A DNA stretch of 64,000 nucleotides, from the NCBI RefSeq assembly GCF_012926505.1, contig NZ_JABBNT010000003.1, positions 659,122 through 723,121 of the forward strand, written 5' to 3'. The notes beneath the pieces are model-generated. The model was not told where the DNA came from. It saw nothing but the letters and a program-made list of their open reading frames with translations, and searched no databases. Source of the DNA: Pacificispira spongiicola. GTDB lineage: Bacteria > Pseudomonadota > Alphaproteobacteria > UBA8366 > Aestuariispiraceae. The position numbers and the translations under genes are program-made. Shown here piece after piece: positions 53,981 to 58,401 of this stretch. Each line of letters begins with the position of its first letter. Position 1 is the first letter of the stretch.

Positions 53981-54009
53981 CGCCGCGTCAAACGCCTGAA
54001 ATGACCAAG

Positions 54010-54041
54010 CCGCCCGGATCGCAAGGTTCGGGCGGTTTTTT
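54010..54041 (+). terminator. Rho-independent terminator of typA
   Basis: CCGCCCG (54010-54016) pairs with CGGGCGG (54029-54035), 12-nt loop, followed by six T (54036-54041). Strong, 30 bp after the stop. It marks the left boundary of the lower-GC accessory cassette. Confidence 0.9.
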
Positions 54042-54082
54042 ATGCATGGAGTAGGTGATAAAAACAAAATTCATAAATGAAT

Positions 54083-54113
54083 GTGGGCAGCTAGCTACTA
54101 ACTAGCTGCCCAC
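54083..54113 (-). terminator. Perfect 12-bp stem terminator of the mini-HTH gene
   Basis: GTGGGCAGCTAG (54083-54094) pairs perfectly with CTAGCTGCCCAC (54102-54113), loop CTACTAA. It follows the mini-HTH stop by 11 bp on the minus strand; the sequence beyond is AT-rich (TTTTGTTTTTATC). Together with 54010-54041 it leaves little read-through in either direction. Confidence 0.8.
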
Positions 54114-54124
54114 GCAATTGTCTG

Positions 54125-54301
54125 TTATTTGGCTGCGGGAACGTTAGCATACCGCTTTCCAGACAACACTTCAGACACGCGACCTTGATTGATTTCAAGG
54201 CGCGCGGCTATCTGGTGCTGAAACAGGTCCGTTGTGGCAGCCAACTTCTTGATCTGAGCGGCGATCGCTGCAGTCATTTGTTTGCGTCCGTAACTTCGCA
54301 T
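54125..54301 (-). CDS. 58-aa helix-turn-helix protein
   Basis: Encodes 58 aa from ATG 54301, fixed by a perfect AAGGAGGT ribosome site 8-9 nt upstream. An upstream frame to 54415 has no protein-like sequence. The HTH covers about residues 29-47 (QHQIAARLEINQGRVSEVLSGKR). This short form with a GRVSEVLSGKR recognition helix is seen in other alphaproteobacteria, often as hypothetical genes. It has a terminator after it and another between it and the upstream gene, so it probably has its own promoter. Candidate DNA-binding regulator of the neighbouring gene; function otherwise unknown. Confidence 0.7.
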   Translation of the reverse strand: MRSYGRKQMTAAIAAQIKKLAATTDLFQHQIAARLEINQGRVSEVLSGKRYANVPAAK

Positions 54302-54426
54302 CCATATCAACCTCCTTTCCGAGCGGCCTTGTCCAACCCGAGGCTTTGGTTTAGCCTTCCGTCTGTCAGAACTATCGAGTTGCTTGGCCCGACCGCATCT
54401 TGAGATTTGGGCCATTTAACTTCCAA

Positions 54427-54457
54427 AAAGGGAAGGCATCATCAATGCCTTCCCTTT
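54427..54457. terminator. Perfect 13-bp stem bidirectional terminator
   Basis: AAAGGGAAGGCAT (54427-54439) pairs perfectly with ATGCCTTCCCTTT (54445-54457), loop CATCA. On the minus strand the stem runs into TTTTT directly, on the plus strand into TTTATTGGTTTTTC. It follows the DGQHR-like gene by 10 bp, separating it from the mini-HTH gene. Confidence 0.85.
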
Positions 54458-54466
54458 ATTGGTTTT

Positions 54467-55705
54467 TCATATGAGTGCCTCCGAACTTTCGCTCGGTAGT
54501 GAGTCGATGCTCAGGGCCGCTCGAACTTTTTTAACCATCTCGCGCTTTGTCGAAGCGCCAGCACTATGAAGTACTAGTTCTTTCGTTCCATCAGAATGCT
54601 CTTTCTCTACCACAAGATCAGACCAAAGCGGTCCAGACCGGCTCCAATCAATTTGGGCTAGGTTTCTGGCGGTTTCCACAGGGTCTTTGGAAGCGAGTGC
54701 ATGAACAACGTCATGGTAGATAACCCCAATCGTTTGCCAGCCTGGAGACGATAAATGGAGGGATTTCCGGTCTTTTGAAAACGCTTCCCCCATTGCATCT
54801 GCGAAAGCATCCAAGAATTCAGCCATCGCTTTGGCATGTTCTAGAGTGTTTTCTGCAGAAAGCGTTGGGTTCTCTATTTCCGCTTTGTTGCTTTCTTGGA
54901 AGGAAGCGCCTTCCATTGCTCCGCGGACGAAACGGAGCAGCACTTGCTGAACAACTATAGCTGTTGATTTGGCACCCAGAGACGCCGCCCTTTCTTCCAT
55001 GCCGCCATGGTTCTTAATTGCGTTACTTTCGCGGGCGAGCCTGTTCGTAACCTGAATGTAAGGGTCAGACATATCTAGGGAAATGGCGATCCGGGGAGGG
55101 ACAGCTACAGCTTTGAAGTTAAAGTCGAAGAAAAGTTGGCCCATTTCTGCACGACTGAGAGGTTCAGATTCAGGATGCGGCGCGTAAATCACGACCGGGA
55201 TCGAGAAACTGCTAAGTAAGTCAACTAATTGCTGACGGTCATCGCTAGGCCTGCTCTCGTCGTAACTCATTTCTAACAACTCTAGAACACTGGAAAGACG
55301 TCCAAGACCATCGACTACGATACGGGCATTTCGAGAACTCATATCAATTTGGATGTGACCGACGCCTTCTGTGTCTGGAATCGCTAGAGGTCGGAAACCG
55401 ACATGGTTTTGAATTGCGATAGAAACTGCAGGAAATGCTCCAATGAGCGTAGAACGCGGACTAAATCTTAAGCGTACATAGTCCATAATGCCACGAAGCC
55501 TTTGTCCCGCAGTCGCTCTTTGTACTTTCGAGTAAATCGCTTCGATGTCGCCGGGCAGCTTTTTCCAATGGCGAGAGCGCGGGTCGTGCCCTAGCAGGCC
55601 TTCGATGGCATGAGGGGGGATTTGAGTCGAATATGTTACAAGACGGTCGCCCACGCGGCCTTGCATGGCAGGAAAGTTTGTCGTGGGGGTCGTTACAGTG
55701 ATCAT
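54467..55705 (-). CDS. Divergent DGQHR/DndB-family protein
   Basis: Encodes 412 aa from ATG 55705 (AAGGAAA upstream); longer upstream frame is not supported. About 50% G+C, clearly below its surroundings, with many rare codons, so probably acquired. Pattern of the DGQHR/DndB family: HDPRSRHWKKLPGDIEAIYSKVQR (about 40-62), RLRGIMDYVRLRF, AFPAVSIAI, then DGLGRLSSVLELL at D132-R136 in place of the canonical DGQHR, and LFFDFNFKAVAVPP (192-203) in place of the usual FSDIN-K motif. Key Q-H are replaced by L-G, implying loss or change of activity. In Dnd systems DndB regulates DNA phosphorothioation, but no dndCDE genes are here. Role unknown. Confidence 0.65.
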   Translation of the reverse strand: MITVTTPTTNFPAMQGRVGDRLVTYSTQIPPHAIEGLLGHDPRSRHWKKLPGDIEAIYSKVQRATAGQRLRGIMDYVRLRFSPRSTLIGAFPAVSIAIQNHVGFRPLAIPDTEGVGHIQIDMSSRNARIVVDGLGRLSSVLELLEMSYDESRPSDDRQQLVDLLSSFSIPVVIYAPHPESEPLSRAEMGQLFFDFNFKAVAVPPRIAISLDMSDPYIQVTNRLARESNAIKNHGGMEERAASLGAKSTAIVVQQVLLRFVRGAMEGASFQESNKAEIENPTLSAENTLEHAKAMAEFLDAFADAMGEAFSKDRKSLHLSSPGWQTIGVIYHDVVHALASKDPVETARNLAQIDWSRSGPLWSDLVVEKEHSDGTKELVLHSAGASTKREMVKKVRAALSIDSLPSESSEALI

Positions 55706-55768
55706 AAATCGTTTCCTTGGTCGCTTTGAATACGGGTTCGGCCGCAGAAACGCGTCGCCGGCGATCAA

Positions 55769-55797
55769 ATAAAAACAAAAATCACGCGGGATGTCAA
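55769..55797 (-). promoter_or_regulatory. Promoter of the DGQHR-like gene
   Basis: Minus strand TTGACA (55797-55792) is a perfect -35; after 17 bp TTTTAT (55774-55769) is a fair -10. Start near 55762, leader about 57 nt. The -35 lies inside an inverted-repeat (GCGGGAT ... ATCCCCGC, 55786-55806), a typical repressor position. Confidence 0.6.
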
Positions 55798-55845
55798 TAT
55801 CCCCGCAATATAAATGTGCTTCCCCGCGTAAAAACGCACGGGGAA
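55786..55845. promoter_or_regulatory. Array of CCCCGC half-sites (operator candidate)
   Basis: GCGGGAT (55786-55792) faces ATCCCCGC (55799-55806); TCCCCGC recurs at 55821-55827, exactly 21 bp (two helical turns) from the first copy; TTCCCCG (55820-55826) faces CGGGGAA (55839-55845) with inner CGT/ACG and four A in the loop. Four related half-sites upstream of and over the -35 look like a cooperative operator, or two RNA/DNA hairpins. The remaining part of the 270-bp gene-free stretch 55706-55975 is AT-rich and otherwise featureless. Confidence 0.5.
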
Positions 55846-55975
55846 AGGGTTGATTTGTCCGGCAGAAAATTTTGTCGAAGCGCCTTTAACTCACTGTTTA
55901 TATTGGGTTTTTCGTTTCGACAATCGGCGAGATTCAGAAACCCATTTGGCGGCATGAAATGTTCTCTTGATATGT

Positions 55976-56431
55976 TTAAACGCTTAATCGCCTAGCCATC
56001 TGAACCACCACCTCCAGCCTATTCAAAAACTCCGACCGGTCCGCCTTTGAGAACGGCCTTGGGCCGCCGGTGATTTGGTTGGTTTCGCGGAGGGACTGCA
56101 TCAGCTCGCGGGTGGCGAGGGCTTGGCCGATATTGTCTTGGGTGTAGGTCTGGCCGTTGGGTTTGAGGGCCAGCGCGCCCTGTTCCAGGCAGCGGGCGGC
56201 CAGCGGGATGTCGTTGGTGACGCAGATGTCGCCCTTGCCGATATGCGCCGCGATCCAGTCGTCGGCGGCGTCGGCGCCGGACGCGACGGTGACGACCTGG
56301 ACCATCGGGTCGGGGCTGGGGCGGATGCCGCCGTCGCTGACCATGATGGTTTTCAGTCTGTGCCGGGCGGCGACGCGCAGGACCTCGTCCTTCACCGGGC
56401 AGGCGTCGGCGTCTACGTAAATTTCCGTCAT
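55976..56431 (-). CDS. YaiI/YqxD-family protein (DUF188, PIN-like)
   Basis: Encodes 151 aa from ATG 56431 (MTEIYVDADACPVKDE). Metal-binding N-terminal DADACPVKDEVLRVAARH and later VTNDIPLAARCLEQGALALKPNGQTYTQDNIGQAL are the family hallmarks; the acidic residues suggest a PIN-like nuclease fold, but activity is unproven. GC-rich like the core genome, so it probably lies outside the acquired cassette. Confidence 0.9.
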   Translation of the reverse strand: MTEIYVDADACPVKDEVLRVAARHRLKTIMVSDGGIRPSPDPMVQVVTVASGADAADDWIAAHIGKGDICVTNDIPLAARCLEQGALALKPNGQTYTQDNIGQALATRELMQSLRETNQITGGPRPFSKADRSEFLNRLEVVVQMARRLSV

Positions 56432-56473: not shown

Positions 56474-57715
56474 TCAGTTTAAGGGCTGGAGCGGTTGAAG
56501 GCTATAGACCGCCTTTTCCTGCATCTGCTTCGCCGCGCCGGGGCGGGACAGCGGGGTCGCGCCCAGTTCCTGAATGAAGCGGTAGAAGCCTTCCAACGCG
56601 TCGGCATTGCGTTTTGGTCGGCGGCCGCCATTGGTCAGGGTCTTCCAGGCGTTGCGGGCATGGCCGAAGGTGCCGATGGAAATGCCGAGGGTTTCGAACA
56701 TGGTCGGCGCGGCCAGCAGGAATTGCTGAAACGGCACCGGGTTGCCTTCCTTCAGCAGGGATCGGTGCGCGGACTCGTGGTTTTTCAGGATATCCGTGGC
56801 GTTGGAGTAGAAACCGCGCATCACGGTCTGGGCCTGCCGGCGTTTGGATTTGATCATGTCGATCTGACGCTGGGTAATATGCTTCGCATCGCGGGGCAGG
56901 GAGTCCGGGCCGTTCAGCCAGGCCAGGAAATCGGTGTAATCGGCGCTGAACTCCCGATATAGGAATTCGTAATAGGCGATGCCCTTCCAGGCGAAAAGGA
57001 CGCGTTCGACCCGATCGGCGGGGATGCCGATGCTGCGGAACAGGCGGCCCGTCCGGTCGTTGGTGCGGCAGGCCCAGATGGCGTCCTGCAAGGCCTCCAC
57101 CGTCGCCTTGTAGCGTTCGTCGGAAGTATTGTCGTCCAGCGCCAGATCGACCAGCCGCTTGGCCCTGTCGGCGATGATGGCGCGGGTCGACGATGCCGTG
57201 CGCGGATCGACGGCGAACCAGTCCTGGTCGACCTTGCGGTCGCGTTCGATATCCGCGCGATGGGCCAGCAACAGGAACGGGTCGAAGGTCGGCGACCGGC
57301 AGAAGACGTCCAGCACGTTGCGGTCGTGCGGGGTCAGCGTGACCTCGATCTTGCCGCCGAACCATTTGTTAATCGCCGGTTCGAATTCGTCGGGCAGGGC
57401 GGAGACGGAGGCCCCGCCCTCCCGCGCGTCATCCTCGTTGAACAGGATCAGCACCCGCGTCGCGACGCCGATTTCGTCGTCGTGATTGACCGTCGCCTCC
57501 TTGAAGAAGACGGCGCGGGCGAAAAGCGGCGAATCGAACAGCGGCTCCCGACCCGGTACGACGGGCGGGGCGTTGGGATCCGGGATGGAGGAGGTCAATT
57601 GCGGGGTAATGTCCAGCGGCGGCTCATCGAACACGTCGGTGCCGTCCAGCTCCCCCGGATTGAAGCATAGAAATTTGCCTGAGCTGAGCAGATAGATCAG
57701 CGTTTCGCGGTCCAT
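56474..57715 (-). CDS. Uncharacterised 413-aa protein
   Basis: Encodes 413 aa from ATG 57715; an in-frame start at 57769 would add 18 residues. I do not recognise the family. No signal peptide or membrane segment. Mixed alpha/beta N-terminal part (FKEATVNHDDEIGVATRVLILFNEDDAREGG) and a helical C-terminal half with KRRQAQTVMRGFYSNATDILKNHESAHRSLL and GFYRFIQELGATPLSRPGAAKQMQEKA. The motif YYEFLYREFSADYTDFLAWLNG may form a conserved helical core. High GC. It is divergent from the HlyC-like gene with an AT-rich palindrome in between; a functional link is possible but only inferred. Confidence 0.7.
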   Translation of the reverse strand: MDRETLIYLLSSGKFLCFNPGELDGTDVFDEPPLDITPQLTSSIPDPNAPPVVPGREPLFDSPLFARAVFFKEATVNHDDEIGVATRVLILFNEDDAREGGASVSALPDEFEPAINKWFGGKIEVTLTPHDRNVLDVFCRSPTFDPFLLLAHRADIERDRKVDQDWFAVDPRTASSTRAIIADRAKRLVDLALDDNTSDERYKATVEALQDAIWACRTNDRTGRLFRSIGIPADRVERVLFAWKGIAYYEFLYREFSADYTDFLAWLNGPDSLPRDAKHITQRQIDMIKSKRRQAQTVMRGFYSNATDILKNHESAHRSLLKEGNPVPFQQFLLAAPTMFETLGISIGTFGHARNAWKTLTNGGRRPKRNADALEGFYRFIQELGATPLSRPGAAKQMQEKAVYSLQPLQPLN

Positions 57716-57800: not shown

Positions 57801-57921
57801 TTGTGCGTCGCGAAAGAGTATTGCGATGGGTTCTTAAGATTCCTTCAACGTCGATCAAGTCGTTGCGCGAAAAAAGAATTTCGTGTCAACTGGCGTCCTG
57901 TACCGAACGTCGGGGGGAATA

Positions 57922-58401
57922 ATGGCCGAGACGGTTCAAAAATCGCAAGCGGCGAACAAGGCGGATACCGGCGGCACAACGCGCCCGGCACCGACCGTCG
58001 CTTCCGTATTGGGTGAGATTTGCTGGCTGTTCTCCATGACGCCGTCGCACCGTCATTTCTTCATGGCCGATCTGGACTGGCTGGTCATCCCGCCGGTGGT
58101 GCGCAACCAGTTCCGCGTCTATCGCGATTCGAAGGGGCGGCCCGTCGGGCTCGTGCTCTGGGCGAAGCTGGACGAGGAGGCGGAGCAGCGTCTTCTGTCC
58201 GGGTCGGCGCGCCTGCGCCCGCAGGATTGGGACAGCGGCGACCGCTATTGGATCATCGATGTCGTCGACCTGTCGAAAGGGCAGCGCGCGAAGGGCATGA
58301 TCGAGGATATGGCCAAGACGGCGCTGAAAGACGTGGTCTTCAAATATCACCGCACGGACAGCGCCGGGAATCGCTCCGTCGTCTCCTCGGACGCGCTATA
58401 G
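57922..58401 (+). CDS. Orphan HlyC-type toxin-activating lysine acyltransferase
   Basis: Encodes 159 aa from ATG 57922 (GGGGGGA 4 nt upstream); an upstream GTG 57883 is less likely. Homologue of HlyC, which transfers fatty acyl groups from acyl-ACP to internal lysines of RTX protoxins. Core LGEICWLFSMTPSHRHFF carries the catalytic His (H43, HlyC His23 equivalent) and WDSGDRYWIIDVVDL carries Asp (D107, HlyC Asp92 equivalent). No RTX toxin or type I secretion gene is in the window, so it is an orphan and its target protein is unknown. Only 1 nt separates it from the downstream 2-hydroxyacid dehydrogenase gene. Confidence 0.85.
   Translation: MAETVQKSQAANKADTGGTTRPAPTVASVLGEICWLFSMTPSHRHFFMADLDWLVIPPVVRNQFRVYRDSKGRPVGLVLWAKLDEEAEQRLLSGSARLRPQDWDSGDRYWIIDVVDLSKGQRAKGMIEDMAKTALKDVVFKYHRTDSAGNRSVVSSDAL

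What the first reader, a model, noticed from the sequence alone, without database searches (positions are those of the whole stretch)
54125..55845. Low-GC cassette: divergent DGQHR/DndB-like protein with a 58-aa HTH gene
A gene near 50% G+C in a >63% G+C chromosome encodes a DndB/DGQHR-like protein, followed by a tiny HTH gene. Both have perfect-stem terminators, the first gene has an operator-like array over its promoter, and the cassette lies between the typA terminator (54010-54041) and core-like genes. DndB-like proteins belong to DNA modification or 7-deazaguanine-type systems, yet no modification or restriction partner is present. This is a compact two-gene module whose role is undescribed to my knowledge.
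Basis: partly seen in the sequence, partly recalled or inferred. Interest (0 to 1): 0.75.

Follow-up and report, generated by a model that had tools for sequence, protein, structure and literature searches.

The report
Solitary phage-type DndB-like gene islet
A low-GC gene stranded among housekeeping genes belongs to a rare branch of the DndB/DGQHR family whose viral members found here have a DNA methyltransferase gene next door, while the bacterial copies found here lack that partner and, in the pairs that could be tested, are still tightly conserved.

Summary
A 412-aa DndB/DGQHR-family gene (54467-55705, -) and a 58-aa HTH gene (54125-54301, -) form a ~1.9-kb islet of ~50% G+C between typA and a DUF188 gene. 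The claimed operator array is not above chance. The protein passes the Pfam DndB and NCBIfam DGQHR cut-offs but fails the DndB equivalog (32 of 328 bits); its pentapeptide is DGLGR, not DGQHR. It is rare (1 of 385 sampled class genomes, 1 of 398 phylum: itself). Motif-guided searches gave relatives in seven bacterial genomes (Ferruginivarius, Acidocella, Novosphingobium, Bradyrhizobium, Granulicella) and nine viral contigs; tblastn gave one cyanobacterial plasmid. All aligned members have DGL[AG]R, which no search pattern used. A DNA methyltransferase gene follows the viral copy, directly or after one gene, in 9 of 9 contigs (6 distinct); none of nine cellular/plasmid loci matched those methylases. 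The window protein groups with Ferruginivarius and one phage (99/100). A similar HTH gene recurs only in Ferruginivarius, so the 'two-gene system' is local. Bradyrhizobium copies: pN 0.032, pS 0.615. Best reading, mechanism inferred: a phage modification-cassette protein, probably a nucleotide-responsive ParB/Srx-fold DNA-associated regulator, kept by hosts without its methylase.

The parts
54042..55975 (.). low-GC islet between the typA terminator and the stop codon of the DUF188 gene
   Evidence: composition; gene GC 0.50 vs 0.65 and 0.63 in two neighbours; the limits (typA hairpin 54007-54038; DUF188 stop) are a judgement
54467..55705 (-). DndB/DGQHR-family gene, 412 aa, DGL[AG]R clade
   Evidence: PF14072 E 3.6e-22, 79.3 bits (cut-off 29.1); TIGR03187 60.3 bits (cut-off 58.85), TIGR03233 32 bits (cut-off 328)
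55574..55594 (-). LGHDPRS motif (residues 38-44)
   Evidence: alignment A5, 14 rows, 13 with LGHDPRS and one with LRHDPRS; used as a search pattern, so partly conserved by construction
55517..55522 (-). QR pair (residues 62-63), a DGQHR-domain motif
   Evidence: invariant in A5; motif named in PMC4619093 (passages)
55298..55312 (-). DGLGR (residues 132-136), in place of the DGQHR pentapeptide
   Evidence: DGL[AG]R in 14 of 14 A5 rows and in the Euhalothece protein; DGQHR in the 7 other family hits that the clade profile reached, of 23
55118..55138 (-). QLFFDFN (residues 190-196), holding the FxxxN motif
   Evidence: Q, L, F, D, F, N invariant in A5; also used as a search pattern
54427..54457 (-). 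intrinsic terminator-like hairpin after the DndB-like gene (13-bp perfect stem, 5-nt loop)
   Evidence: (listed on the plus strand); TTTTT at the minus-strand end of the stem
54125..54301 (-). 58-aa HTH gene
   Evidence: phrog_1468 transcriptional repressor E 1.2e-7; HTH_37 22.6 bits, below its 27-bit cut-off; AAAGGAGG upstream; only other genome match E 0.59
54083..54113 (-). hairpin after the HTH gene (14 pairs, 3-nt loop, AT-rich tail)
55706..55975 (-). leader/upstream region of the DndB-like gene; no operator array above chance

Best explanation
SHOWN: the gene belongs to a distinct, rare clade (DGL[AG]R) of the DndB/DGQHR protein family. In the nine viral contigs found, the clade's gene is followed on the same strand by a DNA methyltransferase gene (directly, or after one gene). 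At five cellular loci where both sides could be read (window, Novosphingobium, Acidocella aquatica, two Bradyrhizobium) it is a low-GC gene next to genes that read as housekeeping genes, without a match to those methylases. The two Bradyrhizobium copies, at one shared site, show very few amino-acid changes for their silent changes. The window copy groups with a phage copy. INFERRED: the protein has a ParB/sulfiredoxin-like nucleotide-binding fold and works as a nucleotide-responsive DNA-associated regulator. In the phage it would control or target the neighbouring methyltransferase, as DndB controls the dnd operon. In the chromosome it was kept alone because it acts in trans, most likely on the DNA or the modification operon of related incoming phages (superinfection control), possibly also on its own promoter. 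That hosts took it from phages, and not the reverse, is also inferred. In this twig a phage-repressor-like 58-aa HTH gene lies beside it as a separate regulator.
For: Family; PF14072 in 14 of 14 and DGQHR in 12 of 14 A5 rows at E <= 1e-3. DGL[AG]R against DGQHR. Viral linkage: PF05869 Dam in L088, L103, L105, L106 and L110, N6_N4_Mtase in L102; by tblastn with the five phage methylases 9 of 9 viral contigs and 0 of 9 cellular/plasmid loci match. Grouping: window + L092 + phage L102 at 99/100. Low GC: DndB-like gene 0.46-0.59 against neighbours 0.59-0.68 in seven of eight cellular loci. Selection: L097/L098 pS 0.615, pN 0.032; L093/L095 pS 0.835 (saturated), pN 0.068; flanking polA-like gene dN 0.104, dS 0.51. 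Fold: two BFVD hits at 2.9e-6 and 2.1e-5 (no names; TM-scores 0.31-0.38), then a GmrSD N-terminal domain protein at E 0.056, probability 0.99. Relatives, from passages read: DndB binds the dnd promoter region (PMC4507180); a DndB-like protein bound ATP and GTP, and DndB is described as an ATP-dependent repressor (PMC12704722); in DndI the arginine of DGQQR is needed for ATP hydrolysis (PMC11662687), and that arginine is kept here.
Against: No biochemistry. The DGQHR motif is changed (Q-H to L-A/G), so nucleotide handling may differ. No PDB fold match at E <= 1e-3 with either model; pTM is 0.52-0.53 and the BFVD TM-scores are low. No operator was found. Superinfection control is a guess: nothing here shows that a solitary copy affects a phage. 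The tree does not show the direction of transfer (midpoint root). The Bradyrhizobium copies have a higher dS than their flanks (1.29 against 0.51 and 0.42), so descent at that site is not proven and part of the constraint could have acted while the gene was phage-borne. dS is saturated between the window copy and L092, so selection on the window copy was not measured. Absence of a methylase was tested only with the five phage methylases and only in the stretch held (3.7-64 kb; L092 and L093 are 3.7 and 4.3 kb). The viral sample is small: six distinct sequences.
Confidence: 0.4

Rival explanations
1. It is a two-gene regulatory or toxin-antitoxin-like module: the HTH protein represses the DndB-like gene and the pair is the functional unit.
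For: Both genes are adjacent on one strand in the window; a similar small HTH frame follows the closest relative (L092; tblastn E 2e-5, 43% over 30 aa). The HTH resembles a phage repressor.
Against: None of the other 13 relatives has a match to the two-sequence HTH model below E 0.7 within 3 kb (self-hits are by construction); a terminator-like hairpin separates the genes; Bradyrhizobium copies without it are well conserved.
Confidence: 0.15
2. It is a single-gene defence effector: a ParB/Srx-fold NTPase or nickase that attacks invading DNA or nucleotides, as proposed for other ParB-superfamily proteins in conflict systems.
For: The superfamily holds nucleases and NTPases (discussion in PMC10853773, passages); the Granulicella relative lies near NotI-type restriction enzyme, HNH nuclease and integrase genes; lone conserved copies fit a stand-alone effector.
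Against: No domain other than DndB was found in Pfam scans of the 14 members; in the viral contigs it accompanies a methylase.
Confidence: 0.25
3. It is a decaying relic of a prophage or plasmid with no present function in this strain.
For: 1 of 14 family genomes has it, low GC, at a synteny break, no partner found.
Against: Full-length open frame with the clade motifs intact and a terminator-like hairpin; lone relatives conserved.
Confidence: 0.15
4. It is an orphan regulator of DNA phosphorothioation (a stray dndB).
For: Passes Pfam DndB; dndBCDE clusters without dndFGH are reported in Alphaproteobacteria (PMC8569181, passages).
Against: TIGR03233 32 of 328 bits; DGLGR instead of DGQHR; no DndC or DndD match in the genome; a same-genus relative carries a dnd-like island with a separate, DGQHR-type DndB.
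Confidence: 0.03

Closest known systems
DndB (TIGR03233), regulator of the dnd phosphorothioation operon
   Same: Pfam PF14072 over nearly the full length; QR pair and FxxxN motifs
   Different: Equivalog score 32 of 328 bits; DGLGR instead of DGQHR; no DndC or DndD match in the genome; viral members lie beside methylases
DGQHR domain proteins (TIGR03187/PF14072), including DpdB-type proteins
   Same: Above both cut-offs; motif order QR - DG..R - FxxxN
   Different: The signature pentapeptide is not met; DpdB was compared only through the literature (PMC12839542, passages)
GmrS/DUF262 (GmrSD, BrxU, DndI, SspE) ParB/Srx-fold NTPase domains
   Same: DGQQR-type motif and QR/FxxxN motifs as described in PMC4619093 (passages); a GmrSD N-terminal domain phage protein is the third BFVD hit
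   Different: No HNH nuclease half found; BFVD E-value 0.056 only; PDB hits, BrxU among them, not significant
Phage orphan DNA methyltransferases (PF05869 Dam, N6_N4_Mtase)
   Same: Viral members of the clade lie 5' of such a gene
   Different: No match to them at the window and eight other cellular/plasmid loci

Membership tests
DndB/DGQHR family (PF14072, TIGR03187) | Profile score over the curated cut-off | tested here: met
   79.3 vs 29.1 bits; 60.3 vs 58.85 bits
DndB/DGQHR family (PF14072, TIGR03187) | DGQHR pentapeptide | tested here: not met
   DGLGR here; DGL[AG]R in 14 of 14 A5 rows. D, G and R are kept. PMC4619093 calls the pentapeptide 'nearly invariant' (passages)
DndB/DGQHR family (PF14072, TIGR03187) | QR pair and FxxxN motif | tested here: met
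   Q62-R63 and F192-N196
DndB proper (TIGR03233) | Equivalog score | tested here: not met
   32 vs 328 bits
DndB proper (TIGR03233) | dndC/dndD partners in the genome | tested here: not met
   No match at E <= 1e-3; genome 97.85% complete
DndB proper (TIGR03233) | ATP-dependent binding to a target promoter | not testable with these tools
   needs purified protein
ParB/Srx superfamily fold | Structural match to a known member | tested here: inconclusive
   No PDB hit at E <= 1e-3; BFVD hits with GmrSD or ParB names only at E 0.056 or worse
Phage DndB-like/methyltransferase cassette | DNA methyltransferase gene downstream on the same strand | tested here: not met
   No match in the window or 8 other cellular/plasmid loci; present in 9 of 9 viral contigs
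Two-gene DndB-like + mini-HTH system | HTH gene beside the gene across homologues | tested here: not met
   2 of 15 loci including the window
DpdB (7-deazaguanine DNA modification) | dpdA/dpdC neighbours | not tested
   No profile search for them was made

The most novel reading that the evidence does not exclude
A phage-borne modification cassette made of a DGL[AG]R ParB/Srx-type nucleotide switch plus a Dam- or N6/N4-type DNA methyltransferase has repeatedly shed the switch gene into host chromosomes, where it persists as a single-gene, partner-free anti-phage or superinfection-control gene that recognises the modification state or operon of related phages.
Probability: 0.25. Interest if true: 0.72.

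Novelty: new variant of a known kind. Interest (0 to 1): 0.5.

Why it matters
In the papers seen here DndB-type proteins are discussed for phosphorothioation and 7-deazaguanine systems. A clade tied to ordinary DNA methyltransferases in phages, with conserved lone copies in bacterial chromosomes, would suggest that this nucleotide-binding switch is a more general accessory of DNA modification. It also gives simple one-gene and two-gene systems in which what DndB-like proteins do could be tested directly.

Tried and rejected
Single-protein scans found no relative: genome contigs (72 stretches), viral contigs (10 stretches; 2 stretches with the Euhalothece protein); a two-row alignment found none in viral contigs (78 stretches). 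tblastn of INPHARED phages gave one weak hit (23%, E 1e-3; fetched and not used further) and none for two viral members. The relatives came from motif patterns: 1 of 6 viral stretches, 7 of 13 genome stretches and 9 of 87 viral stretches were relatives by tblastn; the others were dropped. Two more viral scans gave no new contig. Rejected or not shown: operator array; clean empty site (synteny break); RNA element; tRNA gene as target; flanking direct repeats as insertion marks (of four islets tested, an A-rich 12-mer in the window and an 11-mer in L094 exceed shuffles). PDB fold searches were uninformative; sequence searches of the PDB gave nothing better than E 0.075. Papers were seen only as search listings and passages.

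Caveat on motifs: relatives were picked with GHDPRS..W..LP, LGHDPRS or QLFxDFN patterns, so those motifs are partly conserved by construction; DGL[AG]R was in no pattern. The L102 row of A5 stops 27 residues short of its frame's end (6855).
Full report
OBSERVATION. The window lies at G000:C13:659122-723121 of a 4.2-Mb, 97.85% complete genome. On the minus strand there is a 412-aa gene (54467-55705) and, 165 bp downstream of it, a 58-aa gene (54125-54301) with AAAGGAGG 9 nt before its ATG. G+C is 0.48-0.51 in windows from 54000 to 55999, against 0.63-0.71 to the left and 0.57-0.68 to the right. A 13-bp perfect stem lies between the genes and a second hairpin follows the HTH gene. The claimed operator array is not supported: repeated 5- to 8-mers in 55706-55975 do not exceed dinucleotide shuffles.

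FAMILY. The long protein matches Pfam DndB (E 3.6e-22) and passes NCBIfam DGQHR narrowly (60.3 against 58.85 bits), but the DndB equivalog gives 32 of 328 bits. PADLOC's DndB model gives 36.1 bits; no PHROG matches it. The small protein is a phage-repressor-like HTH (phrog_1468, E 1.2e-7) with HTH_37 similarity below the cut-off. The genome holds one copy of each; the next HTH match is at E 0.59.

RARITY. With the window protein, a relative at E <= 1e-5 was found in 1 of 14 family genomes and 1 of 385 sampled class genomes; with a 9-row profile at E <= 1e-20, in 1 of 43 order and 1 of 398 sampled phylum genomes. Each time the one is the window genome. These samples overlap. The broad PF14072 family occurs in 21 of 385 class genomes, the window's included. 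One plasmid relative (Euhalothece natronophila pEu4, 37%) was found by tblastn, next to a P63C-domain protein.

RELATIVES. A degenerate pattern for GHDPRSxxWxxLP found 13 stretches in genome contigs, of which 7 encode relatives (tblastn E <= 8.8e-76): Ferruginivarius sediminum (49%), two Acidocella (43, 42%), Novosphingobium (44%), two Bradyrhizobium (41, 40%) and Granulicella mallensis (36%). In viral contigs the pattern and a profile-guided scan gave 9 contigs of 6 distinct sequences. L103 and L104 are 99.99% identical over 7.5 kb, and L108 and L109 are each identical to L110 over their length.

CLADE SIGNATURE. All 14 aligned rows, and the Euhalothece protein, carry DGL[AG]R where the family has DGQHR. 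Of the 23 other PF14072 matches in the class sample, the clade profile reached seven, and these seven carry DGQHR; the other 16 were not settled. DGL[AG]R was not part of any search pattern, so it is an independent mark of the clade; GHDPRS and QLFxDFN were search patterns. The QR pair and FxxxN, described as the other DGQHR-domain motifs in PMC4619093 (passages), are kept.

VIRAL PAIRING. In L088, L105, L106 and L110 (with L108 and L109) a PF05869 Dam methyltransferase gene follows on the same strand; in L103/L104 a T5orf172/MUG113 gene lies between the two; in L102 an N6_N4 methylase gene starts 155 bp after the DndB-like frame and the contig carries a gpA terminase. By tblastn with the five phage methylases, 9 of 9 viral contigs and 0 of 9 cellular or plasmid loci (window included) match in the stretch available. 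That test would miss an unrelated methylase. No PF05869 match exists in the window's genome.

CELLULAR COPIES. Gene names here are read from translations (recalled), except LysE and DUF188, which are Pfam hits. The Novosphingobium copy lies between a rimO-like gene plus a 157-aa frame without Pfam match on one side and a gltD-like gene on the other; the Bradyrhizobium copies lie between a polA-like gene and a LysE-family gene; the Acidocella aquatica copy lies beside ilvB/ilvN-like genes. In seven of eight cellular loci the gene is 0.09-0.16 lower in G+C than the neighbours measured; Granulicella differs by 0.03-0.08. Granulicella is also different in context, with NotI-type restriction enzyme, HNH nuclease and integrase genes nearby. 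The Ferruginivarius and Acidocella-MAG contigs are too short (3.7 and 4.3 kb) to judge context.

SELECTION. Between the two Bradyrhizobium copies pS is 0.615 and pN 0.032 (dN/dS about 0.03); their polA-like flank has dS 0.51 and dN 0.104, and the LysE-family flank dS 0.42 over 102 aligned residues. The Acidocella pair has pN 0.068 at saturated synonymous sites. Copies without a methylase neighbour thus look constrained. The higher dS than the flanks leaves allele replacement or separate entry possible.

DESCENT. In a maximum-likelihood tree of 15 proteins the window groups with Ferruginivarius and the phage contig L102 at 99/100; Acidocella, Novosphingobium and Bradyrhizobium form another group (87/94), and three phage copies form the deepest branch at the midpoint root, which is for drawing only. 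The tree does not fix the direction of transfer.

HTH GENE. A model from the two known HTH proteins finds no third case below E 0.7 within 3 kb of 15 loci; the two self-hits are by construction. In Ferruginivarius the longest HTH frame overlaps the end of the DndB-like gene. The pair is therefore, as far as seen, a feature of this twig.

SITE. In two single-contig same-genus genomes, typA and the DUF188 gene lie 59 and 62 kb apart on the same strand; in the window genome a 10.7-kb block starting at DUF188 lies in the opposite orientation directly after the islet. The islet sits at that junction, so no clean empty site can be shown from these relatives. A same-genus genome (G013) has its own dnd-like island with a DGQHR-type DndB, a PAPS-reductase-like gene and an SMC-like ATPase gene (names recalled from the translations, DndB excepted).

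STRUCTURE. AlphaFold2 models from 9 and 14 rows have mean pLDDT 75.9 and 79.5 and pTM 0.53 and 0.52. PDB searches gave nothing at E <= 1e-3. BFVD gave two unnamed hits at 2.9e-6 and 2.1e-5 with TM-scores of 0.31-0.38, then a GmrSD N-terminal domain protein (E 0.056, probability 0.99) and some ParB-named phage proteins at weaker scores. This agrees with, but does not prove, the ParB/Srx assignment made in the literature for DndB and DUF262.

MECHANISM. Literature passages: Salmonella DndB binds the dnd promoter region (PMC4507180); DndB is described as an ATP-dependent repressor, and a DndB-like protein bound ATP and GTP (PMC12704722); the arginine of DGQQR is needed for DndI's ATPase (PMC11662687); ParB-superfamily members in conflict systems may also be nucleases or NTPases (PMC10853773). 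Combined with the methylase pairing, the most economical model is a nucleotide-responsive DNA-associated regulator of a phage methylase cassette, kept by hosts as a trans-acting lone gene. The regulator step, the nucleotide step and the host benefit are inferences; a stand-alone defence effector is the main rival.

NOVELTY. Searches of the open-access library for DndB with DGQHR, DndB/DpdB/ParB, DGQHR domain, DndB-like/orphan/solitary/standalone DndB and PF14072, DndB with prophage and Dam methyltransferase and 'DNA-sulfur modification-associated' showed, in their listings and in the passages read, no description of this clade or of its methylase pairing. The listed phage papers were not opened, and subscription papers are not covered. 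The DndB family is known, so this is a new variant.

Noticed in passing
window 53981-66680: A 10.7-kb block (55990-66680) lies in the opposite orientation, next to typA, compared with two single-contig same-genus genomes where typA and DUF188 are 59 and 62 kb apart; the islet marks the junction.
   Followed up: partly
window 54058-54069 and 55769-55780: A 12-nt direct repeat ATAAAAACAAAA brackets the HTH and DndB-like genes; longer than shuffles give but A-rich.
   Followed up: no
window 57883-58401: HlyC/RTX acyltransferase-family gene (PF02794, E 7.7e-31); no RTX structural gene was looked for.
   Followed up: no
window 56474-57715: 413-aa protein without a Pfam match at E <= 1, with an apparent counterpart near DUF188 in G011 and G013.
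   Followed up: no
L114 (G013:C1:2264001-2278000): Same-genus dnd-like island: large ATPase-like, PAPS-reductase-like, DGQHR-type DndB, SMC-like ATPase and helicase-like genes (names recalled except DndB).
   Followed up: partly
L101 (Granulicella mallensis): The clade member lies near NotI-type restriction enzyme, DUF3892, DUF6998, tyrosine recombinase and HNH nuclease genes.
   Followed up: partly
L092 2663-3445: PD-(D/E)XK nuclease-superfamily domain gene (PF20472, E 9.7e-36) near the Ferruginivarius copy.
   Followed up: no
G010:C16:193695-195512: The typA relative is reported with one TAA in the matched stretch at 84% identity, perhaps just an end-of-frame effect.
   Followed up: no
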